Origin: Planctomycetota bacterium
GTDB lineage: Bacteria; Planctomycetota; Phycisphaerae; UBA1845
NCBI GenBank assembly: GCA_029558835.1
Contig: JAKQDH010000206.1
Coordinates: forward strand, 1 to 64,000
Length of the DNA stretch: 64,000 bases
Direction: 5' to 3'
Position 1 is the first letter of the stretch, and each line of letters begins with the position of its first letter. The notes below the pieces were generated by a model. That model was given only the letters and a program-made list of their open reading frames with translations. It was not told where the DNA came from and ran no database searches. Position numbers and translations under genes: made by a program. Below, one piece after another: positions 23,751-35,100 of this stretch.

Positions 23751-26700
23751 TCAGGAACCCGGAAGAGGTTTGGTGGGATCCGGGGGGGTGCCGGGCTGAT
23801 CTTCATTGGCCACGTGAGACCGCTCATTCATTCTGTGATCCGCCTTGCTGCTGAGTAGGTAGGCAAGCTCGGTCGCGTCGTGCTTACTCCACCGACGGAC
23901 CACGTCCACCAAGAGGTCCGCCTCCCACCGCGCCGCTCTTTCTGCCAGTTCGGACAGCCTCTTGCCCTCCTTGATATGGCTCCACAGCTTCTGCGCCATA
24001 TCTTGACTCCAAGAGAAATCACCAAAGACCAGAGCGAGGTCACATGCCGTATCGACCTGGCTGATGCGAGCCGCGAGTGCGGGTTTGTCGATCGCGTTCC
24101 AGATTATCGCGGCTTCGTCCTCGCCCACGGCGTTCGCCTCGCGCAAGGCGAACGCCACTACAACCGGATCATCGATGTGGTTGCGCCGCTCGGCCAGGCG
24201 GGCCCAGTCAATGCGTTGGATTACTTGCGGTGAGAATCCGTAGCAGGGCATCAGCGTCTCGCATAAGAGCTGCATCGCCTCCGCGAAGTCGTCCGCATCC
24301 AGAACATGCCGCGTCAGGCACTCTCCGTCCCACAACGGTTCGGTGACTTTGAGCAACCGCTCGCCACCTTGAGCCAAGGCGTCCGCGCGAATGTGAAAGG
24401 CGTACAGGTCGGGGAGCTCGTTGAGTCGCTCCGCGAATCTCTCCCGGTTCATCAGAGACCACACGTGTTCGCCAGTATCCTCCGCGGCCCGGAAGAGGCT
24501 GCCCAGGCAACGACAAACGCGGGTGATGTCGTCATCAGTGTCAAGGGACGCAGCAATCCTGGTGGGGTCCGCAAGGTCGCGCAGGTCTCCGCCGCACGCC
24601 CGATGTACGCTGTAAAGGGTGCATACACACTCAATGGCTTCCTCAACATGCTCGAAGCGGTCGATGTGTGCCTTTGCCTTGCCTTGCGGACATGCAGACC
24701 AAAAAGCCGCTGCTGCTGCCGGGTTGGCTTGCTGCAGTATGGTGATGCATCGGCAGATTTGTTTCGCATCGCCTAGAGTATCTGCCCGCCGTGTGAGGTC
24801 AGTGTACAGCGATTCCCACACGGCAGTTCCGAGGCTGGGGCTGGCGTTGAACAGGTCTGCAGCCCAACGCGCCATGCGTTCGATAGGGCCAGGTCCCGCG
24901 ATGAGGCTGGCAAGCTTCCTGGTGTCGAACAGGGCGGCAATGGGTTTCTGGATCTGTTCGGCAAGGCCGGCCAGTGTGGCGGCGCAAAACACGACATTCT
25001 CCGTATTGGCCAGTGCCTCGATGGACGCGATGAGTTGCTTAAAGGCGAGCGTGCGGGCCAGTGCCACCGCCGCCGGTTCGTGCGCCGTACGGAGTTCCCG
25101 GAGCACGGTGCAGACGTGCCAGACGTGCGGGTCAGCGCTCAGGGCCTCGCCCAGCGAGGAGGCGTCGATTGCTTCCCAAAGCTGCTCGCCGGTGTGAACG
25201 TCAACTGCGTAGAGAGCGGCAACGCAGCCGCAGACGCGGCTGGCGTCGGACGTTGTGTGGGCGTTGAGTTTCGCGGCGAGGCTGGTCACGTCCACACTGC
25301 GCCAAACCTTCTTATTGCACGTAAGAAAGGCCGGATGAACCGAACAGAGGAACAGCCATACGTCGTCGACAGTCGCAGACTCGTTCAGTTTGCGTGTCAA
25401 CTCCGGTCCCGCAAACGCACTCAGCAGCGCATCACCAGCTCGTCGCTCGAGGCCATATACGCCACTCAGGCACTCGCTTGCAGTGCCTAGTTGCTCGAAG
25501 GCGTGGAGCCGGTCGGCAATACACGTCAAGACCGGGCCGCGGAGCCGGGATTCCGCCGCCCTCCGCCGCAACCACCGCAGGATCGCCGTGACGGAGCGCT
25601 CTCGCCCGAGTACGGACTTTACAAGGCCTTCCTCTTCTAGCCGTTCGTCAACGCGCCGAAAGACACTCTGGGGGGCGCTAGCGACAGCTTCCAGGCCGTT
25701 CGGCGTGTCGGCTGCGGCGTATCGGTAGATGAAGTCCTCGAGGCTCCACGGCTTGCGCCGGAACTCCTGCCCGTGTTCCCAGTAGGCGGCGGCGAGGCTG
25801 GCGTGGGGCAACCCATAGAAGAGCTGGCCGTAGCGCTTGGACTCCGTGATCTCACGCCGCCGCACCAGCTTATGTAGCTCAGTGTCGGTGAAGCCGAGCT
25901 CGTCTGTGAGAAACGCTTCGGCGGTGGATACCTCCCCGAGATAAAGTGGGGCCAGGGAGAGTAGGATGCGGGGGAAGCGTGGACCATCAGACCTCAAATC
26001 TCCGAGGTCTTCGCACACGCCTTCTCTGACCCAGGTCTTGGGATCGCCACTGCCCGCTGCCGCATCGCAGCCGCGGAGGGCGTAGGTAAGCAGCCAGTAG
26101 TCGTCCTTGCCGACGGTACGGAGCTGACTTCGAATCGCCTGCGATGCGAAAACGTGGGGATTCTTGGCGCGAGCCGCAAATGCGCAGATGATGTCATCGG
26201 CGTACGCGAACGGTGTCAGTACAACGGTCGGCAGTTTGTCAAGCGGTTCAAGTCGGGAGTCTTCGTGAGGGATCAGCCGCGCGGTGATGACGACGTATCC
26301 GTCGAGGTCGGTCTCCTTGAGTTCGCCCCAGAGACACTGGAGCTTGTACGGCTCGAGGTGCATGTTCTCGAGGAGGAACAGCTGATCCGCCTGTTTGATG
26401 AAAGTCGCCAGTTTATACACATCGAAGTCGCGGTGCAACCGGCAATCGAGATAGTAGGAGTCCTCAAACTTCTCACCGCGCCAGTCGTACGCGAGCCAGC
26501 GTGCGAGCACCGTCTTGCCCGTTGCCCGCTCGCCGGTGAGGCGGACGACGTGGCTTTTGCGAAGCTCATCTCGCATCTCGTTGATCTTTTCGTCGGGCCG
26601 GTAGACGCGCCCGTCCCGAAAATCAGCGGCTGTTGGGCCGGACTTCCGGAACCAGTGCAGCTGCTCGTTGCTGCGCGTCTTCATTTCGTCCCTGAGCGGC

Positions 26701-28076
26701 CGCACTCCTCTGGGCCGGGAGAGTCCTGGTTGTTGCTGCCTCAGACCTCCCGGGAGCTGCTTGCGTGCCCCCTCGGGTGACACTTGCGGCCGGGACCTGC
26801 GAAACTGCCGCAGGATCTTCATGACCGACCGTGCTGCTTCGGCCTGATTCGACACGCGGTCCAGCGTGGCGCTGATTTGGGCGGTGAAGCGTGCATCCTC
26901 ACCCGGAGTGGCGTAGAGCCGCAGCAGTTCTCCGGCTTCATGTCGTTCTCGCCATAGGTACTGACGTACGTAAGCACACACCTGCGGAAGGAGCGAGCGG
27001 TTGGGCAGAAGCTTGTATGGGTATTGCATGATGAATGAAGCCAGCGCGGGGCGGAAGTGCGCGGCGACGTCTTCTTCGCGTACCCCTTGGTGGAATTGCT
27101 CCTCGAAATGGAGTTCCACTTTGCGCCGAACATCTGCAGCAAACTCGATCGTGCAGGCGACCTCTAATCGTTGCTCTGCTTCATGATCCAGCACCACCCT
27201 TTCGGGAGCGCCAGCAGGAATCTGTTGCAGGTCCCTGCACGCTTCGCGGTACTCATTGGCCGCGGTGACAAAGGCATCGACGACTGGCCCGGCTGCGGAT
27301 GGAGCGCCGCCCCGCGCCCGTTTCAGAAGGTCAAGGCACTCACGCGCTTGACCGATCTGCTTGAGCCAATCCTCCAGGAAGCAGGCCGCTAGTCTTGGAT
27401 TGACCCCGAGGAGCTCCTCGTGCGCAAGGCACGTGACCTTGGTAATAGCGCGCGCCAGGTCAGTATTGTACGTGCTAACGACATGCTCGATGCGGTCACG
27501 CTGCTCCTTGGTCGCCTCGCCGGTCGCGCGTGGGTCGCCGACGAACTGCAACGCGTCGAGCAACTTGGCCGGGTCAATCACCGTCGGGTCGTCATTGACG
27601 GCATTGAATGCGTCGTCCACGAGCTGCCAGGCGCTCACCGCGTCGGCGCTTTTGCAGAAGGCCTCCTTCGCTGCGTCGAGGAACGTGTTCGCTTCGACCA
27701 AGTTCGATGTGAGCGGGACCGTGGTGTGGAGCGACCATGTCGTTTGATGGACACTCGGGACGTCGATGGAGTGCGGGGGGGCATCCTCCAAGTCCAGGCA
27801 CGTTCGCAGCAGGGCGGCAGCCTTTGACGCGAATACCCCGAACTGCTCGGGATAGGTCTTCTTCTTCTGCCGCTTGGCGCGCCATGTCGGGAAAAGAAGG
27901 AAGCCCTCCATCCAGTGGACGTGAGCGTGGACATGAGCGCGAACCAGCAGTGCGCGGAGCAGCCGTGCTTCATTGCTGCGTCCGAGCGCATTGCCGCTGA
28001 CCTCGTTGGTTTGCGACTTTCTGCCGCCGAACACGATTCTGACTGGCGCATCGTAGTTTTCTGATTTTGCACTCAT
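23751..28076 (-). CDS. Large STAND-like P-loop ATPase with C-terminal helical repeats, candidate defence protein
   Basis: 1441 residues without signal peptide or membrane helix. The N-terminal 1-470 is mainly helical and matches no family I recognise. An ATPase core follows: P-loop GERATGKT at 515-522, a Walker-B-like FLLENMH (567-573, Glu in place of the usual Asp), and a VVITAR sensor-like strand at 595-600. From about 880 to 1395 the protein is built of roughly 38-residue helical units with a loose pattern LW..ID...LA..L (for example QLWEAIDASSLGEAL and HVWSLMNRERFAERL). An N-terminal module, central STAND-like NTPase and C-terminal solenoid is the layout of bacterial conflict proteins such as Avs, whose solenoid senses phage protein. 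Defence is inference. The start codon has only a weak ribosome binding site. Divergent from the neighbouring operon. Confidence 0.75.
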   Translation of the reverse strand: MSAKSENYDAPVRIVFGGRKSQTNEVSGNALGRSNEARLLRALLVRAHVHAHVHWMEGFLLFPTWRAKRQKKKTYPEQFGVFASKAAALLRTCLDLEDAPPHSIDVPSVHQTTWSLHTTVPLTSNLVEANTFLDAAKEAFCKSADAVSAWQLVDDAFNAVNDDPTVIDPAKLLDALQFVGDPRATGEATKEQRDRIEHVVSTYNTDLARAITKVTCLAHEELLGVNPRLAACFLEDWLKQIGQARECLDLLKRARGGAPSAAGPVVDAFVTAANEYREACRDLQQIPAGAPERVVLDHEAEQRLEVACTIEFAADVRRKVELHFEEQFHQGVREEDVAAHFRPALASFIMQYPYKLLPNRSLLPQVCAYVRQYLWRERHEAGELLRLYATPGEDARFTAQISATLDRVSNQAEAARSVMKILRQFRRSRPQVSPEGARKQLPGGLRQQQPGLSRPRGVRPLRDEMKTRSNEQLHWFRKSGPTAADFRDGRVYRPDEKINEMRDELRKSHVVRLTGERATGKTVLARWLAYDWRGEKFEDSYYLDCRLHRDFDVYKLATFIKQADQLFLLENMHLEPYKLQCLWGELKETDLDGYVVITARLIPHEDSRLEPLDKLPTVVLTPFAYADDIICAFAARAKNPHVFASQAIRSQLRTVGKDDYWLLTYALRGCDAAAGSGDPKTWVREGVCEDLGDLRSDGPRFPRILLSLAPLYLGEVSTAEAFLTDELGFTDTELHKLVRRREITESKRYGQLFYGLPHASLAAAYWEHGQEFRRKPWSLEDFIYRYAAADTPNGLEAVASAPQSVFRRVDERLEEEGLVKSVLGRERSVTAILRWLRRRAAESRLRGPVLTCIADRLHAFEQLGTASECLSGVYGLERRAGDALLSAFAGPELTRKLNESATVDDVWLFLCSVHPAFLTCNKKVWRSVDVTSLAAKLNAHTTSDASRVCGCVAALYAVDVHTGEQLWEAIDASSLGEALSADPHVWHVCTVLRELRTAHEPAAVALARTLAFKQLIASIEALANTENVVFCAATLAGLAEQIQKPIAALFDTRKLASLIAGPGPIERMARWAADLFNASPSLGTAVWESLYTDLTRRADTLGDAKQICRCITILQQANPAAAAAFWSACPQGKAKAHIDRFEHVEEAIECVCTLYSVHRACGGDLRDLADPTRIAASLDTDDDITRVCRCLGSLFRAAEDTGEHVWSLMNRERFAERLNELPDLYAFHIRADALAQGGERLLKVTEPLWDGECLTRHVLDADDFAEAMQLLCETLMPCYGFSPQVIQRIDWARLAERRNHIDDPVVVAFALREANAVGEDEAAIIWNAIDKPALAARISQVDTACDLALVFGDFSWSQDMAQKLWSHIKEGKRLSELAERAARWEADLLVDVVRRWSKHDATELAYLLSSKADHRMNERSHVANEDQPGTPPDPTKPLPGS

Positions 28077-29668: not shown

Positions 29669-30055
29669 ATGTCGCGGCCATGGCGTGAACGCGTCCATGA
29701 TTGGGACGCAGTGCATGAGAACGTGTGGTACCTGCTCCGCGTGGCGGCGATTGACAGAACGGGCGCGCCGCCGGCAATCCGCGTGCACCTTGCGTTTCTG
29801 GAAGACGTGCAGGTTGGGAGGACGCACGTCGCGTCATTGCCCGTCCCGGTGAGGCCTGCAGGGCTCGCGGCGGACTTCTTCCTCTCGTGCGGGGTCGAGG
29901 TGGTCGCCGGCGGCACCGTCACTCCGAAGGCGGTTGTCGGCAAGGTCGTGCGGGCGCAGTTCGCCCCCGGCGCACCGGCGGGCGCGTGGCAGATCGTCCG
30001 CTTCGCCCTCCCGGAGGGCAACGACGCGCCCCACGAAGCGGACCGCCGTGCGTGA
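29669..30055 (+). CDS. Hypothetical protein, first gene of the ubiquitin-like operon
   Basis: 128 residues. The second of two nearby ATGs is chosen because GGGAGG sits 8 bases upstream of it and only 2 bases from the first. The sequence is strand-rich (VWYLLRVAAIDRTG, IRVHLAFLEDVQVGRTHVA, VVGKVVRAQFAPGAPAGAWQ), with no signal peptide, Cys cluster or catalytic motif. I do not recognise a family. It is 50 bases upstream of the zinc-finger gene and co-directional with the whole operon. A TCTAAT box (29617-29622) lies upstream but lacks a good -35 partner. Confidence 0.6.
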   Translation: MSRPWRERVHDWDAVHENVWYLLRVAAIDRTGAPPAIRVHLAFLEDVQVGRTHVASLPVPVRPAGLAADFFLSCGVEVVAGGTVTPKAVVGKVVRAQFAPGAPAGAWQIVRFALPEGNDAPHEADRRA

Positions 30056-30105
30056 TCATGGGGACCGACGTGTCGGCGTGAGTCACTCCAGGAGGTGAAG
30101 GACGA

Positions 30106-30570
30106 ATGGCCCAGAGTTTCCAAATCCCGCCGGGCGACGTCGAGTACCGCAATACGCTGCGCGATGCGCGCGGTACTGAAGTGCTCAAGTTCGGGTACCG
30201 CGAGGTGGTCACGATCGACCCTGAAGGGCAGTCAAGGGTCTTCAAGGAGTCCGAACACGTTGCGTTGGCCGACGGTCGGCTGTTCACGGCAGCAACACTC
30301 GCGACCGGGAAGATCGAGCTCGCGATCTGCGACTTGTGCCGCTACCCGCTCCCGCCGCGGTGGTGGTGGAGCCAGCCCGAATCTCCGTCATTGGGCTGCA
30401 TGGCGCGTGAGTCCGGCGCATTCTGTGCCGGTTGCTCGCTCTTTGTCTGCAAGAAGCACTCGGCGGTTGTCGCCGACGGCTCGGTGCGCTGCATCCTCTG
30501 CGCCCGTCGCTTTCGGTGGCGTGCGCTCTTTCGCGCCTTGTTCTTTACTCCGATCCGGGAGGATGCATGA
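30106..30570 (+). CDS. Binuclear zinc-finger (RING/FYVE-like treble-clef) protein
   Basis: 154 residues with strong GGAGGTG eight bases before the ATG. The N-terminal 70 residues look like a small beta domain (FKESEHVALADGRLFTAATL). The rest carries four ligand pairs: C75-x2-C78, C107-x2-C110, C115-x2-H118 and C129-x2-C132. The spacing C-x2-C-x28-C-x2-C-x4-C-x2-H-x10-C-x2-C is that of cross-brace binuclear treble clefs (RING/FYVE/B-box class). The C-terminal tail is basic and hydrophobic. In an operon with Ub-like, E2 and JAMM genes, a role as E3-like adaptor or target recogniser is an attractive inference, not shown. The stop overlaps the next start (ATGA), indicating translational coupling to the ATPase. 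Confidence 0.72.
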   Translation: MAQSFQIPPGDVEYRNTLRDARGTEVLKFGYREVVTIDPEGQSRVFKESEHVALADGRLFTAATLATGKIELAICDLCRYPLPPRWWWSQPESPSLGCMARESGAFCAGCSLFVCKKHSAVVADGSVRCILCARRFRWRALFRALFFTPIREDA

Positions 30571-31469
30571 TGTCGCAATCGTGGCGTGACCAGTTGATTG
30601 CCCAGATTGATTTGTGTCGCCCGGGCCCGCGGGACAAGGGCCTGCTGGCGCTGCGCGCGCTTGCAGCAAACGGCCGCCTCTCGGAGGCGATGTGCCGTTT
30701 CCACTACCTGCGCCTGTTGCTTCATCCGCCGCGGTGCGCGGACAGCCTGGCAGGTTTCACCGAACCCCCCTCGCTCGAGGAGTGGCGTTCGGCGGTCGTC
30801 ACGGAGGCGCCGATTGGCGTCCTGACTGAGGTCGAGGGCGCTGAATTCGGCCCGCATCTTTCGGATCGTGTCGAGCACTGGGCTGTGGCTGGGACCACGG
30901 GTTTTGGAAAGACCGTCACGCTGCGCGGGCTCGCCTTGGCGCTCGACGCGCTCGGCCGCGCGCTGCTCGTGTTCGAGCTGAAGCGTGACTGCGCCGACTT
31001 CGTGCAGCGGCTGGCCCGGTGCGTGCGCGTCCGTGCCGGCCAGGGAGCGTGGTTCGGCTTGCAGGCGCCTGCCGGTGTCGCCGATCGCGACTGGGCCATG
31101 GTGCTCGCGGCCATTCTGGCCGCGCGCTGTGGCCTGAAGCACGCCACGACGTCTCTTGCCCGCATGCTCACCTGGCTGGTCGAACAGCTCAACCGCGCAG
31201 CAGTCCGCGGGCGCCTTTGGCCGGATGTCCAACTCCTTTGTGACGTCGCCGTCGCCGCACCGTCGGCGAAATTCGCTGCGAAGGAGGACTACGAGCGCAG
31301 CTCGATCCAGGTGCTGGACGGGGTGGCCCACGCGCTGGGCCCGTTCGCCCGTACGTTTCGGGGAATCGACCTCGAGCAGTTCCTCGCCCAGGGGACCAGT
31401 GTTGTGGTGGATCTCAGCACGCTGGAGCCGCCGGCGCAGTGGGTGGTCATCGACGTGCTGCTCAGCTAG
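30567..31469 (+). CDS. FtsK/HerA-type ATPase, N-terminal part ending at an amber codon
   Basis: 300 residues. The ATG at 30567 overlaps the previous stop as ATGA, with GGGAGG upstream. A helical N-terminal segment (1-80) leads into a P-loop domain with Walker A GTTGFGKT at 109-116 and the FtsK/HerA-like strand LLVFELKRDCADF. The frame stops with TAG at 31467-31469, directly after WVVIDVLLS. The next codons, in the same frame, continue the same domain (Walker B ICILLDES). The TAG therefore interrupts the ATPase and most simply represents a CAG-to-TAG nonsense change. Genes at 452 and 1911 end in TAG, so TAG is a normal stop here. Confidence 0.75.
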   Translation: MMSQSWRDQLIAQIDLCRPGPRDKGLLALRALAANGRLSEAMCRFHYLRLLLHPPRCADSLAGFTEPPSLEEWRSAVVTEAPIGVLTEVEGAEFGPHLSDRVEHWAVAGTTGFGKTVTLRGLALALDALGRALLVFELKRDCADFVQRLARCVRVRAGQGAWFGLQAPAGVADRDWAMVLAAILAARCGLKHATTSLARMLTWLVEQLNRAAVRGRLWPDVQLLCDVAVAAPSAKFAAKEDYERSSIQVLDGVAHALGPFARTFRGIDLEQFLAQGTSVVVDLSTLEPPAQWVVIDVLLS

Positions 31470-31664
31470 GTGCTCATCGGGCGGATGGCGCGCGACCAGA
31501 AGGTCGACCGCACCGAGATCTGCATACTCCTGGACGAGAGCGACCTGCTGGTTACGGATGAGGCCCATGCTGGGTTTCCGGGCCGGCAGTCGCCGCTCAT
31601 GCGCGTCCTCCGCCAGGGCAGAGAGTTCGGCATCATGGTGGCTTTGGGGATCAACGTGCTATGA
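31470..31664 (+). pseudogene. ATPase middle fragment with Walker B, between amber stop and frameshift
   Basis: 64 codons in the same frame as the preceding part, starting with GTG immediately after the TAG. It carries ICILLDESDLL (Walker B) and RQGREFGIMVALG, the strand that in HerA/FtsK proteins precedes the sensor segment. It ends at TGA 31662-31664, within ATGA shared with the next ORF. There is no ribosome binding site, so it is unlikely to be made alone. Confidence 0.6.
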
Positions 31665-32629
31665 GCGCGTCTGAGTCTATTCTTAACAATGTCCAGAACC
31701 TCGTCATCCTCCGACAGGAAGCCCCTGGCTCGGTTGTCCGGGCGCTGCGCGCCCTGCCGCTCCCGCCCGAGGCCGCGGGCCTCCTGATGTCCCTTGACCG
31801 GGGGGACGCGGTTCTGCACCTGGCGGGCTGGCCGGAGCCGGTCCTGGGGCACGTGACGTTTGTTCCGCCGCATCGGGGTTCTACGGCCACGCCGGACCCG
31901 CAGCTTGACGTGGTTCCGGCAAGGCGACTCGCCGAATTGCCCGAGGTGCTTGACGAGCTAACACACGCCAAAGGCGAGCTGGGGCGGGTGCGCAAGAGCG
32001 CGGACGACACCCCGGACAAGATCATGGCGAACGTTCACGATGTCCTGGCAGACTGGATCCGTCAACCGGGCAAGCCGATGGCGCGGATCTGGGCTGCGCT
32101 TGGGATTGATGCCCCGTCCAAGCAGAAGGCGATCCGCAAGGTGCTGGCACCCAAGTTCGCGCAGATCCGCGACGAGCGGTTCGGTTCGGCGAAGGTGGCG
32201 ATTCTCCTGCCCAACGCGGCCGGCTATGCGCTCGTCGGTCGGGGTTCCCTGACCGGGCTGGGACGTGGTGAGGTTGTTCATCTGCACGGGGCCTGGTGGG
32301 CGCGCGACTGGGCCGTCAAGCAGGGCTACGAGGCCCACTTGGAGTGGCGGGTGGGAGTGGGTGTGAACCACCCTGCGGACGTGGGCTATTGCGCCGATGG
32401 TGTCTGGCACGTGATCGAGGTGGTGGACACGTCCTTCCTGAACCTTGCCGACGCGGTCCGGGCGAGCCTGGTGCTCTCGACCATCGTGCAGACCGTCACG
32501 ATCGTCACGAAGCTGAAGAGTGAGCACGCCCGCGTCCGTCGCCTGCTCGCCGTGGAGGACCTGGCTGGGGTGATGGACCGCGTGCAGCTGTCCACGTTCG
32601 ACTTCTACCTGCGGGAGGTGTACCCGTGA
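31661..32629 (+). CDS. ATPase C-terminal part with PD-(D/E)xK-like domain
   Basis: 322 residues in the -1 frame relative to the previous fragment. Its first residues (SASESILNNVQNLVILRQ) align in register as the continuation of the ATPase, so the gap is a one-base slip at CTATGAGC. Residues 1-80 complete the ATPase fold. A coiled-coil-like linker and small helical domain follow (about 85-165). The last 150 residues resemble a restriction-endonuclease-like fold: an Asp in PADVGY, the strand WHVIEVVDT with Glu, then two helices, as in nuclease tails attached to such ATPases. The usual Lys of ExK is replaced by Val, so catalysis is doubtful. The ATG overlaps the previous stop and could allow separate translation by coupling. 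Confidence 0.65.
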   Translation: MSASESILNNVQNLVILRQEAPGSVVRALRALPLPPEAAGLLMSLDRGDAVLHLAGWPEPVLGHVTFVPPHRGSTATPDPQLDVVPARRLAELPEVLDELTHAKGELGRVRKSADDTPDKIMANVHDVLADWIRQPGKPMARIWAALGIDAPSKQKAIRKVLAPKFAQIRDERFGSAKVAILLPNAAGYALVGRGSLTGLGRGEVVHLHGAWWARDWAVKQGYEAHLEWRVGVGVNHPADVGYCADGVWHVIEVVDTSFLNLADAVRASLVLSTIVQTVTIVTKLKSEHARVRRLLAVEDLAGVMDRVQLSTFDFYLREVYP

Positions 32630-32817
32630 CGCGGGCCGTGCGCATCGCGCTGATCGTCGTTCTCATGCTCGGTGCCCTGTCGTTCCTGGTCGCGGGGCAT
32701 GAGTGGGAGCTGGCACACCCGCGGTCCTCGCCGACCCGGGGCGCCGGGTACGAGCTGGCCATGCTGGCCATGGTCGTGATCACAATCGCGGCGCTGCTAC
32801 GGCGGCGTGGTCGGTAA
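32626..32817 (+). CDS. Small two-helix membrane protein 1
   Basis: 63 residues starting with GTG that overlaps the ATPase stop (GTGA). Two hydrophobic helices (about 5-24 and 43-58) flank a short polar loop, with a basic C terminus (RRRGR). No family recognised. Its strict overlap with the upstream gene argues that it is a true operon member rather than a chance ORF. Confidence 0.6.
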   Translation: MTRAVRIALIVVLMLGALSFLVAGHEWELAHPRSSPTRGAGYELAMLAMVVITIAALLRRRGR

Positions 32818-32918
32818 GGACGCGCGTCATGCGGCAGCAACGGTGACGTCAGCGGTGCGTCCGCCAGGCTCCCGGGCGAGCTGGCATACTGTACGCAGGT
32901 ACGGGAGAGCCGTGACGT

Positions 32919-33164
32919 ATGAACACGCAGCCCACGCAACAGCAACCGCGCCCCGTGCGACCTCGGTGGGAGCTGCTGTTCCTGCCGCTGGCGGCGCTCG
33001 TCCTGCTGGTGCTTTGGACGCGGTCGGTGGCCGTGCAGCCGGCATGGTCCGCGCTCCTGGACCGCTGGCAGATCCATGATCGGCTGCGTTTCACCGAACT
33101 GGCGATGTTCGCGCTGTGCCTGATCGCGGTGGTCGCGATCGCGCGCGCGTCCCGGAGCCCGTGA
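32919..33164 (+). CDS. Small two-helix membrane protein 2
   Basis: 81 residues with a Gln/Pro-rich start (NTQPTQQQPRPVRP) and two hydrophobic helices (about 18-33 and 58-76). It lies between membrane protein 1 and the ubiquitin-like gene. A weak GGAGAG lies about 14 bases before the ATG. No family recognised; possibly a membrane anchor for the operon's complex, which is inference. Confidence 0.55.
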   Translation: MNTQPTQQQPRPVRPRWELLFLPLAALVLLVLWTRSVAVQPAWSALLDRWQIHDRLRFTELAMFALCLIAVVAIARASRSP

Positions 33165-33195
33165 GGCTAAGAATCGTGCACCGAGGAGAACACCG

Positions 33196-33429
33196 ATGCA
33201 GCACTATGCGATCCAACATGTCAATGGGCAACCTCTCAAGGTCCCGGTCGCGCCGGATGGGAGTATCGACGTGGACGTGTTGTGTCAGCTGGCCAACGTC
33301 GCGCCGGATCGGGCGCTGGTCCTCCAGCGGCCGGATGGCAGCAATCAGCTGGTCCCGCGCGGCCAGAAGCTGACGGTGCGGCCGGGCGCGCAGTTCGTGG
33401 ACGCCCCGACGCACCGGCGGGGGGCGTGA
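33196..33429 (+). CDS. Ubiquitin-like (beta-grasp, multiubiquitin-type) protein
   Basis: 77 residues, ATG preceded by GAGGAG. The pattern VNGQPLKVP, DVLCQLANVAPDRALVLQRP and VRPGAQFVDAP follows the single beta-grasp unit of bacterial multiubiquitin/E2-associated Ub-like proteins (two strands, helix, two strands ending in GxxF). The C terminus is RRGA rather than a di-glycine, so either the terminal Ala is removed by the operon's JAMM peptidase to expose Gly or conjugation uses another residue; both are inference. The stop overlaps the E2 start (GTGA), which ties the two together. Confidence 0.68.
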   Translation: MQHYAIQHVNGQPLKVPVAPDGSIDVDVLCQLANVAPDRALVLQRPDGSNQLVPRGQKLTVRPGAQFVDAPTHRRGA

Positions 33430-33812
33430 CCGTGTCGCCCGTGCTGCGGGAGCACATCCGGATGGCGTCGTGCTTTTACCGCTTGGCGGTGGCGCGGGAC
33501 GGGGCCTGGGTGCGCGTGGACGACTTCGCGCTGCCGGCGGGCTTCAACGTGCCGGTCACGCAGGTGCTCGCAAGCCTCCCTCCGGACTACCCGCTGCGCG
33601 CGCCGGGGGTGCTGCCCTGGGGCCTCTTCCTCCGGCCGGGGCTGCGGTACCACGGCCGCTGCCACCCGAACATCGTCGAGGGCCAGGGGCCCGGCTGGGG
33701 CGCGTGGTCGTGGCTGTGCATCTTGCGCGTGGCGTGGGACCCGCGCCGGGATGACTTGCTGCGGTGCCTTGAGATGGTCCGGGCGGTTTTGTCGGCCCCG
33801 TCGGGGTGGTGA
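33426..33812 (+). CDS. E2-like ubiquitin-conjugating enzyme fold protein
   Basis: 128 residues starting with GTG at 33426, four bases overlapping the Ub-like gene. It shows the E2 core order: a strand ending LPAGFN, the LPPDYPLRAPG turn equivalent to the YPxxPP motif, then R-C-HPN-I (HPN at 80-82), Cys98 in SWLCIL, AWDP and a final helix (LLRCLEMVRAVL). HPN followed about 16 residues later by Cys and then WxP is the classical E2 active-site layout, so Cys98 is the likely thioester-forming residue. It resembles the bacterial E2 family associated with multiubiquitin and JAB-ThiF proteins. It would transfer the Ub-like protein to a target. Eleven bases separate it from the JAMM gene. Confidence 0.75.
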   Translation: MTVSPVLREHIRMASCFYRLAVARDGAWVRVDDFALPAGFNVPVTQVLASLPPDYPLRAPGVLPWGLFLRPGLRYHGRCHPNIVEGQGPGWGAWSWLCILRVAWDPRRDDLLRCLEMVRAVLSAPSGW

Positions 33813-33822
33813 GGTGTGCTGT

Positions 33823-35100
33823 ATGTTCGAGCCGTGCAACCAACTGAGTGTGCCGCCGGGGCCGCGGACTGTTCTCCGGTTCGTCGGGAACGGGTTTGGC
33901 GTCCTGCGCGACCACCTGACGGCGGATCCCAGTCGTGAGCAGTTCGCGTTCCTGCTGGCCCGGCCGGTTGCGACCGCGGACGGCGTGCTGCTGCTCGTGC
34001 TGGATGTGCTGCTGCCCGAGCCGCAGGACCTGGTCGCGCAGTCTGGGTTCGGTGTCGAGCCGCGACCGGAGTTTCAGGCGCTGGTGTATCTGCTTGCCGA
34101 GCAGCAGGGCCTCGTCGTGCTCGATGCGCACACGCACGTCTGCGATGGGCCACCCTCGTTCAGCCCGGTGGACTGGGCCGCCGCGCGGGCCAATGCGCGC
34201 TACATCGTGGAACGGTTCCCGCCGCCCACGACGCTCGGCCTGGTTGTGTTCAACCGCGGGCTGACCGCCTGTGACGGCATGCTGTTCGAGCGCGACCGCG
34301 CCGCGTTCGCCGCGATCACCGAACTGCAAGCCGTGGGGGCCGGCCTCACCATCCAGAGGACTGCAGAGGCGAGGGATGGTGCGCCAGTTGATGAGCGCTA
34401 CGCCCGCCAGCGGCTCGTGCCGGGCTGGAACCAGACCGGGCTGGAACATCGACGATGTGGAAATCTGGGCCGGTGTGAATACGACGGACTTGGTCGCCGA
34501 CCTCAATGGCGACGGCGTCGTGGACATCCAAGACTTTGCCGTGCTGGCGGACTGCCTGACGGGGCCGGAAGTGCCGCCGGCAACCGGCTGCGAGAACGCG
34601 GACCTCGATCAGGACGTGGACGTGGACCTGGCGGACTTCAGCGTGTTCCAGTTGCACTTCGGGGCGGGCCGGTGGCCTGCAACGCTGCCGTGCGGGAGAT
34701 TGAGAAACAAGGCGAGCGGGACTGTCATTCGCCGCCGCGGGAATCCCGCTCGGACCTGCGCCATTTGGCTGGGATGTTGCCCGCGTTCCATTTCTTGTAT
34801 GCCGCCTGTAGCTCCCTGAGTCGCTCCGGTTCCTGCGCGGCGAGGTCAGTCTCCTCGCCCACGTCCCGGCTCAGGTTGAAGAGCTGCGGCGCGCTCCGAC
34901 GCCGGGCAACGACCTTCCAGTCGCCTGCGCGCACCGCGGATTGCCGTCCGAAGCGCCAGAACAAGGCATCGTGGGGCGTGTCCTTCTTGCCGTGGAGGAA
35001 GGGCACGAGGTCGATACCATCGAGCTGCATCGCGGGTCGTACCGGGATACCGGCGGCCGCCAGTGCCGTCGCGTGGATGTCGAGCGACACCACCGGGTAA
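33823..35100 (+). CDS. JAMM/JAB peptidase with truncated E1 (ThiF) start; C-terminal half is out-of-frame run-on
   Basis: The ATG at 33823 follows GAGG at about 8 bases. Residues 1-175 form a JAMM (MPN/Prok-JAB) domain: Glu39 in SREQFAFLL, H103-T-H105, Ser114 and Asp117 (HxH-x8-S-x2-D), the zinc and catalytic ligands, all present. Residues 189-206 (DERYARQRLVPGWNQTGL) match the opening of E1/ThiF domains, which normally continue into a VVGAGGLG nucleotide loop. Here that loop is missing: at 34436-34447 the sequence joins the 3' end of a dockerin-type gene in another frame, and the remaining 220 codons to 35100 are run-on without homology. The ancestral gene was therefore a JAB-E1 fusion. The peptidase may still be active; the E1 is lost. 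Confidence 0.7.
   Translation: MFEPCNQLSVPPGPRTVLRFVGNGFGVLRDHLTADPSREQFAFLLARPVATADGVLLLVLDVLLPEPQDLVAQSGFGVEPRPEFQALVYLLAEQQGLVVLDAHTHVCDGPPSFSPVDWAAARANARYIVERFPPPTTLGLVVFNRGLTACDGMLFERDRAAFAAITELQAVGAGLTIQRTAEARDGAPVDERYARQRLVPGWNQTGLEHRRCGNLGRCEYDGLGRRPQWRRRRGHPRLCRAGGLPDGAGSAAGNRLRERGPRSGRGRGPGGLQRVPVALRGGPVACNAAVREIEKQGERDCHSPPRESRSDLRHLAGMLPAFHFLYAACSSLSRSGSCAARSVSSPTSRLRLKSCGALRRRATTFQSPARTADCRPKRQNKASWGVSFLPWRKGTRSIPSSCIAGRTGIPAAASAVAWMSSDTTG
34420..34447. repeat. 12-base direct repeat at the E1 truncation junction
   Basis: CCGGGCTGGAAC occurs at 34420-34431 and again at 34436-34447. The first copy encodes PGWN of the E1 start; the second encodes PGWN of the dockerin-type fragment in a different frame. 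The layout suggests microhomology-mediated joining. Confidence 0.7.
34436..34700 (+). pseudogene. 3' fragment of a dockerin-type exported protein gene
   Basis: In the frame starting at 34436 the sequence encodes PGWNIDDVEIWAG, DLNGDGVVDIQDFAVLADC and DQDVDVDLADFSVFQLHFG, the closing module of the many exported proteins in this genome. No start codon, signal peptide or upstream domain belongs to it; its 5' part was replaced by the JAB-E1 gene. The frame continues past the usual end of such modules, so its 3' end may also be altered. Confidence 0.7.

What the first reader, a model, noticed from the sequence alone, without database searches (positions are those of the whole stretch)
29669..34447. 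Ubiquitin-like conjugation operon with E2, Ub-like protein, JAMM peptidase, E1 start, zinc finger and FtsK-type ATPase
Seen: a co-directional run with overlapping starts and stops encodes a beta-grasp protein (33196), an E2-like protein with HPN 80-82 and Cys98 before WDP (33426), a JAMM protein with Glu39, HTH and S-x2-D (33823) fused to an E1-type opening, a four-ligand-pair zinc finger (30106), a P-loop ATPase and two tiny membrane proteins. Known: bacterial operons joining Ub-like, E1, E2 and JAB proteins exist and some (for example Bil) act against phage. Inference: this is a larger variant in which an ATPase/nuclease-like protein, membrane proteins and a RING-like finger may be added parts. 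I do not recall this exact gene set as described.
Basis: partly seen in the sequence, partly recalled or inferred. Interest (0 to 1): 0.92.

Follow-up and report, generated by a model that had tools for sequence, protein, structure and literature searches.

The report
Broken ubiquitin-like operon with DNA motor
This is a damaged copy of a bacterial ubiquitin-like protein-tagging operon, related to the recently described Bub pathways, that in other planctomycetes is intact, always sits with a DNA-pumping ATPase, a zinc-finger protein and small membrane proteins, and rides on islands inserted in tRNA genes.

Summary
The gene run is real. Ubl (33196), E2 (33426) and JAB-E1 (33823) are homologues of the BubA, BubB and BubCD proteins of bacterial Bub pathways, shown by Pfam, PDB profile hits and a predicted beta-grasp fold. 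In this window the operon is decayed: the ATPase has an in-frame TAG and a frameshift, and the E1 stops after its first residues at a junction with a dockerin-like tail. The same order (zinc finger, HerA-type ATPase with winged helix and nuclease-like tail, membrane protein(s), Ubl, E2, JAB-E1) is complete at 5 loci in 4 other planctomycete genomes; further loci are cut by contig ends. None of 20 other Bub-type JAB-E1 loci has the zinc finger. All ten flanking stretches end in a tyrosine integrase touching a tRNA gene; in one complete genome the island is 58.8 kb between 47-bp tRNA repeats. Differences from Bub: E2 Cys where most Bub-type E2s have Ser; Ubl ends in an invariant Gly plus 0-3 residues; no DUF6527. 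The finger resembles FYVE, not RING; the HPN motif is chance. Most likely a Bub-like conjugation system coupled to a DNA-translocating ATPase; its function, probably defence or island competition, is inferred.

The parts
29669..30055 (+). P1, 128 aa, unknown; homologue directly upstream of the finger gene in one relative
   Evidence: 27% identity to L067:3685-4056, E 2e-9 pairwise; no Pfam hit
30106..30570 (+). Double-zinc finger protein, C-x2-C..C-x2-C-x4-C-x2-H..C-x2-C, FYVE-like zinc domain at residues ~72-142 plus an N-terminal beta-rich part
   Evidence: 8/8 ligands invariant in 8 homologues; AF2 model, residues 101-140 pLDDT >90; best structural neighbours FYVE/Slp/Rim fingers, Z 4-5
30567..32629 (+). 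HerA/FtsK-type P-loop ATPase with winged helix and nuclease-like C-terminus; pseudogene here (TAG at 31467-31469, frameshift ~31640-31672)
   Evidence: tblastn with the intact L067 ATPase, two frames, E 2e-57; HerA_C 2e-4; DUF87/HerA_C over the cut-off in intact relatives
32626..32817 (+). Small membrane protein (63 aa)
   Evidence: same slot holds small membrane proteins in L022, L027, L065, L067, L097
32919..33164 (+). Second small membrane protein (81 aa, RWEL motif)
   Evidence: counterparts in L067:7164-7478 and L097:1297-1539
33196..33429 (+). Single-domain ubiquitin-like protein; invariant Gly76 followed by one residue (Ala)
   Evidence: alignment of 11; AF2 pLDDT 91; Z 10.0 to Citrobacter multi-ubiquitin 9d59
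33426..33812 (+). E2 (Prok-E2_E / BubB-like) with Cys98
   Evidence: PF14462 1.4e-5; profile hit to Citrobacter BubB 2.3e-8; Cys98 conserved in ten own-type E2s
33823..34460 (+). JAB/JAMM peptidase joined to an E1 stub (truncated BubCD-like protein)
   Evidence: 41% identity to L066 JAB-E1 over 202 aa, E 1e-38; JAMM residues invariant; intact relatives hit ThiF 1e-27 to 1e-32 and Citrobacter BubCD 3.1e-22
34460..34700 (+). Dockerin-like tail (DLNGDGVVDIQDFAVLADCLTG) in another frame that replaces the rest of the E1
   Evidence: sequence; tblastx similarity to other such tails in the window at 9.9, 15.3, 45.7, 54.3 and 59.5 kb
23751..28076 (-). Divergent STAND NTPase, possible regulator or neighbour; unrelated STAND/NACHT or HTH genes lie in the same place and orientation in L022, L068, L098, L027
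   Evidence: nSTAND3 1.1e-5, just below cut-off; NACHT 1.6e-10 in L022; no shared sequence family

Best explanation
The window holds the decayed remnant of a Bub-type ubiquitin-like conjugation operon coupled to a HerA-type DNA-translocating ATPase and carried by a tRNA-integrating island. In intact relatives the JAB half of the fused enzyme probably trims the Ubl to its invariant C-terminal Gly, the E1 half adenylates it, and it passes to the E2 Cys as a thioester. From there it is conjugated to a target, most likely the ATPase assembly of the same operon or a foreign protein that the assembly engages. The double-zinc finger protein, translationally coupled to the ATPase, probably acts as an adaptor, and the small membrane proteins as a tether. 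The nuclease-like tail of the ATPase would attack foreign DNA, and the JAB half would reverse conjugation. Shown by computation: homologies, conserved residues, gene order, islands, decay in this copy. Inferred: trimming, thioester chemistry, target, adaptor role, defence.
For: Full-length profile hit of JAB-E1 to Citrobacter BubCD (3.1e-22) and of E2 to BubB (7.4e-20; 2.3e-8 with own-type and Ser-branch rows only). Ubl fold match to multi-ubiquitin proteins and BubA (Z 10.0 and 8.4). Zinc finger and ATPase present upstream at 5 of 5 own-type loci with full upstream sequence, or 7 of 7 with the Ser branch, and at 0 of 20 other JAB-E1 loci; Fisher p 1.9e-5 and 1.1e-6, loci not fully independent. 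Nine own-type JAB-E1s form a 100/100 clade that mixes taxonomic families, as expected for mobile genes. ATPase-ZnF overlap by 4 bp in L022, L027, L067 and the window. DUF87/HerA_C over cut-offs; winged-helix hit 1.7e-4 and REase_MTES_1575 0.0068 in single members; invariant H, D, E, N in nine tails. Integrase within 150 bp of a tRNA gene at 10 of 10 loci; 47-bp att repeats and a 58.8-kb island in a complete genome. Precedent for HerA plus nuclease in defence: DUF4297-HerA and Sir2-HerA (PMC12948488).
Against: No experiment. The nuclease assignment is weak: no PDB match and the usual Lys of PD-(D/E)XK is replaced. The target of conjugation is unknown. Bub operons themselves have not been shown to protect against phage (PMC13373217). 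E1 relatives show no conserved Cys apart from the presumed zinc ligands, so the transfer step is uncertain. This copy lacks an E1 and cannot run the cascade by itself.
Confidence: 0.6

Rival explanations
1. The conjugation module works like Bil: the Ubl is attached to a phage structural protein, and the ATPase and finger are a separate defence module sharing the operon.
For: Bil conjugates a Ubl to phage tail fibre (PMC12948488). HerA-type ATPases act in defence without Ubls.
Against: Finger, ATPase and Ubl genes are never separated at the 5 complete loci, and finger/ATPase/membrane genes mostly overlap, which favours one machine. The E1 matches BubCD better than BilD (PADLOC BilD only 0.002; BubCD 3e-22).
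Confidence: 0.2
2. The operon is an element-maintenance or transfer function of the island (DNA segregation, excision or silencing of rivals) and not defence.
For: It sits at the integrase end of tRNA islands, next to an excisionase-like gene in L022, L064, L065, L067, L097, L098; HerA/FtsK ATPases move DNA; the islands carry a second HerA-like ATPase in G186 and G445.
Against: Related Bub-type operons lie on plasmids next to CBASS or CRISPR genes. No relaxase, pilus or replication genes were evident among the island ORFs read (not searched by profile).
Confidence: 0.2
3. The lesions in the window are assembly or sequencing errors and the copy is intact in the organism.
For: The genome is a 224-contig draft; a single-base error could make the frameshift or the TAG.
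Against: Three separate lesions, one of them a junction with a dockerin-like tail of a kind common in this window; a relic of the same operon occurs in a genome of the same family (L028).
Confidence: 0.1

Closest known systems
Bub (bacterial ubiquitination-like) pathways: BubA Ubl, BubB E2, BubCD JAB-E1 (Gong 2025, Ye 2026, cited in PMC13373217; PDB 9ea4, 9eae, 9d59)
   Same: Ubl fold, Prok-E2_E family E2, JAB fused to the N-terminus of the E1, gene order Ubl-E2-JAB-E1
   Different: Single Ubl with 0-3 residue tail after Gly; Cys instead of Ser at the E2 active-site column; no DUF6527 gene; added zinc finger, HerA-type ATPase and membrane proteins
Operon type 6e of Iyer, Burroughs and Aravind 2006 (PMC1779556): multi-Ub, RWD-like E2, JAB-E1, zinc protein C-x3-C..H-x2-C
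   Same: Same core of Ubl, E2-fold protein and JAB-E1 fusion; a zinc-binding partner
   Different: The 2006 E2-like protein lacks the Cys and the zinc protein has another signature; no ATPase described in the passage read
HerA-nuclease defence systems (DUF4297-HerA, Sir2-HerA/Nezha)
   Same: HerA-family ATPase in a putative defence locus
   Different: Here the ATPase carries its own winged helix and nuclease-like tail and is tied to a Ubl cascade
Bil (BilABCD) and type II CBASS (Cap2/Cap3)
   Same: E1, E2 and JAB enzymes acting on a Ubl or CD-NTase
   Different: No CD-NTase seen in the mapped operons; JAB fused to the E1; weak similarity only in the E1 domain
FYVE/Rim/Slp-type double-zinc fingers
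   Same: Ligand order and spacing C-x2-C..C-x2-C-x4-C-x2-[CH]..C-x2-C; best structural neighbours
   Different: Bacterial, sixth ligand His, low Z (4-5), no known lipid or Rab partner

Membership tests
Bub pathways | JAB domain fused to the N-terminus of an E1, homologous to BubCD over full length | tested here: met
   Profile of intact relatives plus the window JAB hits 9ea4 BubCD, 3.1e-22, residues 6-408; in the window only JAB and an E1 stub remain
Bub pathways | E2 homologous to BubB / Prok-E2_E | tested here: met
   PF14462 over cut-off; BubB 2.3e-8
Bub pathways | Beta-grasp Ubl modifier like BubA | tested here: met
   AF2 fold pLDDT 91; Z 10.0 to multi-ubiquitin 9d59, 8.4 to BubA 9ea8
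Bub pathways | Ser at the E2 active-site column, as in most Bub-type E2s aligned here | tested here: not met
   All ten own-type E2s covering the column have Cys; most other-type rows have Ser, a few Cys. Whether Ser defines Bub could not be read, as the papers are not held
Bub pathways | DUF6527 partner gene (a common partner; whether it is defining could not be read) | tested here: not met
   Present beside JAB-E1 in plasmid Bub-type loci and a like gene in L029, L030; none seen among the ORFs listed for the own-type operons
RING finger E3 | RING ligand order C-x2-C..C-x-H-x2-C-x2-C..C-x2-C | tested here: not met
   Centre is C-x(1-2)-C-x4-C-x2-H in all homologues
FYVE-type finger | Double-zinc fold with FYVE spacing | tested here: inconclusive
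   Spacing fits; nearest structures FYVE/Slp/Rim but Z only 4-5, no Pfam hit above cut-off
HerA/FtsK ATPases | DUF87/HerA_C domain with P-loop | tested here: met
   L067 DUF87 39.5 bits (cut-off 23.2); L027 HerA_C 24.0 (cut-off 22); window copy broken
PD-(D/E)XK nucleases | Asp..Glu-x-Lys catalytic core | tested here: inconclusive
   Invariant H, D, E, N but no Lys; REase_MTES_1575 0.0068 in one member; no PDB match
Bil defence | BilD-type E1 and separate JAB | tested here: not met
   JAB is fused to the E1; PADLOC BilD only 0.002 for L022
Any Ubl antiviral defence system | Protection against phage | not testable with these tools
   Needs a phage challenge of an intact operon

The most novel reading that the evidence does not exclude
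A previously undescribed branch of bacterial ubiquitination in which a Ubl cascade with a Cys E2 controls a membrane-linked HerA-type DNA translocase/nuclease. In its Ser-E2 branch (L068, L098) the ubiquitin fold itself has been replaced by an unrelated 55-66-residue peptide ending YDKG plus a short tail, which would be a first case of an E1/E2/JAB apparatus running on a non-ubiquitin modifier.
Probability: 0.2. Interest if true: 0.85.

Novelty: new variant of a known kind. Interest (0 to 1): 0.6.

Why it matters
It ties a ubiquitin-like cascade to a DNA motor in bacteria, which makes the open question of what Bub-type pathways modify directly testable: the operon itself offers a candidate target. 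The Cys/Ser split of the E2 active site between two sister operon types, and a branch that seems to have swapped its modifier, are natural experiments on how ubiquitin chemistry evolved. The tRNA islands give a reason for the patchy spread.

Tried and rejected
RING finger: rejected by ligand spacing and fold neighbours. HPN motif: rejected, not conserved. PDB sequence search with the Ubl profile gave no significant match, so the fold rests on the model. PDB search with the ATPase tail profile gave nothing usable. Phage and viral-contig searches found no relative. The genome-contig scan found three loci, two of them from one genome. A direct repeat of the tRNA 3' end was found only where the genome is complete (G186); other islands run into contig ends or had none in the stretch held. 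More members of the Ser branch were sought and not found. The Bub papers and Burroughs 2011 are not in the library, so the absence of this gene set from the literature is not proven. A first E2 alignment placed other residues at the Cys98 column of Bub-type E2s; the larger alignment puts Ser there.
Full report
What is there. On the + strand between 29669 and 34460 the window encodes, in order, a 128-aa protein (P1), a 154-aa double-zinc protein, a HerA-type ATPase, two small membrane proteins, a 77-aa ubiquitin-like protein, an E2 and a JAB peptidase joined to the first residues of an E1. Starts and stops overlap by 4 bases at ZnF/ATPase, ATPase/TM1 and Ubl/E2. Pfam calls the E2 Prok-E2_E above its cut-off (1.4e-5) and gives weak hits for the JAB (0.011) and ATPase (HerA_C 2e-4).

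This copy is broken. Against the intact ATPase of L067 the window reads in one frame to an in-frame TAG (31467-31469), continues in the same frame through the conserved LLDESD region, then shifts frame near 31655. The E1 is homologous to relatives up to about 34460 and then gives way, in another frame, to a dockerin-like tail (DLNGDGVVDIQDFAVLADCLTG), a type of tail found at several other places in the window. The held assembly of this genome (91% complete) has no second E2, and no second JAB-E1 at E<=1e-8. A genome of the same family (G022, L028) holds another relic: intact Ubl, an E2 fragment, the C-terminal end of the E1 and a fused radical-SAM end.

Intact relatives. Searching planctomycete genomes with the JAB-E1 gave own-type loci in G186, G445 (two copies), G705, G540, G740, G651, G787 and G814, and a divergent branch in G734 and G781. 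Profiles of the five core families applied to all loci held show zinc finger, ATPase, Ubl, E2 and JAB-E1 together at L022, L027, L101/L033, L065 and L067, with membrane proteins between ATPase and Ubl. L064, L066, L096 and L097 are cut by contig ends. L068 and L098 keep the order but not the Ubl. None of 20 other JAB-E1 loci has the zinc finger, nor an ATPase of this family in the operon (one, L100, has a remote ATPase match on the other strand). Fisher p is 1.9e-5 for 5 v 20 and 1.1e-6 for 7 v 20; the loci are not fully independent. The intact JAB-E1 proteins score ThiF at 1e-27 to 1e-32.

Relation to Bub. The JAB-E1 profile hits Citrobacter BubCD over full length (3.1e-22). The E2 profile hits BubB (7.4e-20, with two Bub-type rows in the alignment; 2.3e-8, own type plus Ser branch only). 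The Ubl model (pLDDT 91, beta-grasp order of strands and helix) matches Citrobacter multi-ubiquitin protein at Z 10.0 over 72 residues and BubA at 8.4. Bub is defined in papers that are not held; they are cited in PMC13373217, which also says that Bub has not been shown to protect against phage. Operon type 6e of 2006 (PMC1779556) has the same core, with a Cys-less E2-like protein and a zinc protein of signature C-x3-C..H-x2-C. In plasmids and planctomycetes those loci carry multi-ubiquitin or Ubl genes, DUF6527 and sometimes ImmA/IrrE proteases. Nine own-type JAB-E1s form a 100/100 clade, next to a weakly supported group that holds L068 and L098.

What differs. First, at the active-site column all ten own-type E2s that cover it have Cys (W-x-[WF]-x-C-[YFI] or alike), while most Bub-type E2s have Ser in an S-x-H context. 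A few others (L078, L024, L080, L100) have Cys. From memory, not checked here, Bub was reported to use an oxyester intermediate, which would fit Ser. Second, the Ubl has an invariant Gly followed by 0 (L096, L097), 1 (window, L022, L027, L028, L033, L065, L066, L067) or 3 residues (L064). A fixed Gly with a short variable tail is what a JAB-trimmed precursor would look like; this is inference. Third, DUF6527 is absent from the gene lists of these operons, and finger, ATPase and membrane proteins are added.

The added parts. The zinc finger has eight invariant ligands, C-x2-C..C-x(1-2)-C-x4-C-x2-H..C-x2-C. The model is confident over residues 101-140 (pLDDT above 90), and its nearest structures are melanophilin/Slp, Vps27 FYVE, Rim2 and Slp4 fingers at Z 4-5: FYVE-like at best, not RING. 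The ATPase is HerA-type (DUF87 39.5 bits in L067, HerA_C above cut-off in L027). Its tail has winged-helix hits and invariant H, D, E and N residues compatible with a degenerate restriction-endonuclease fold, which is not proven. In L068 and L098 the tail is a separate gene.

Mobility. In all ten own-type or Ser-branch stretches that hold the 3' flank, a tyrosine integrase lies within 150 bp of a tRNA gene (Phe, Ser, Met, Arg or Val), against 5 of 18 other loci with any tRNA in the stretch. An excisionase-like gene lies next to the integrase in L022, L064, L065, L067, L097 and L098. In G186, a single-contig genome, the island is 58.8 kb between 47-bp repeats of the tRNA-Phe 3' end, with the operon at the integrase end. 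No tRNA is found in the window. The tree groups loci from different families, as expected for transfer.

How it probably works. Shown by computation: the protein families, conserved catalytic residues, gene linkage, islands, and the decay here. Inferred: the Ubl is trimmed by JAB, adenylated by the E1, carried on the E2 Cys and attached to a target. Because finger and ATPase are locked to the cascade and translationally coupled, I take the ATPase assembly, or what it grips, as the likeliest target, with defence against foreign DNA or rival elements as the likeliest use. HerA-nuclease defence is a precedent (PMC12948488). A Bil-like action on phage proteins and an island-maintenance role remain open.

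Unexpected branch. In L068 and L098 the Ubl slot holds a 55/66-residue peptide (45% identical) that looks too short for a beta-grasp and ends YDKG plus Q or VQL, while the E2 has Ser at the Cys column. Only these two loci were found. If the peptide is the modifier, this would be new; nothing here proves it.

Noticed in passing
L068:7270-7437 (-) and L098:9960-10160 (-): In a branch with Ser-type E2 the Ubl slot holds a 55/66-aa non-Ubl peptide ending YDKG plus Q or VQL, a possible replacement modifier; the ATPase is split into two genes there.
   Followed up: partly
L102-L104 (G186:C1:2285623-2344482): 58.8-kb integrative island between 47-bp tRNA-Phe repeats; carries the intact operon, a NACHT NTPase, a second HerA-like ATPase and a 2131-aa protein of possible defence type.
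   Followed up: partly
L066:146-1042 and L096:906-1646: vWA-domain proteins (one with a zinc ribbon) next to own-type Ubl/JAB-E1 genes.
   Followed up: no
L066:3911-5365, L067:12754-13752, L068:2722-3663, L028:5750-6835: A radical-SAM protein family (weak SPL/DUF5131 similarity) recurs downstream of the operon near the integrase.
   Followed up: no
window:23751-28076 (-): 1441-aa STAND NTPase divergent from the operon; other own-type loci have unrelated NACHT, STAND or HTH-regulator genes in the same divergent place.
   Followed up: partly
L065:18000-19337: 445-aa protein that by eye looks like a STAS-GHKL protein (CapK-like?); no Pfam hit.
   Followed up: no
window 34460-34700 and about 9.9, 15.3, 45.7, 54.3, 59.5 kb: Recurrent dockerin-like C-terminal tails (DxNxDGxVDxxDFAxxxxCLTG) across the window.
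   Followed up: no
E2s of L019, L021, L029, L030, L069, L071, L072, L074, L076, L077, L079, L081, L099: Ser at the Cys column, mostly followed by x-His (S-x-H), is the rule in other planctomycete and plasmid Bub-type E2s.
   Followed up: partly
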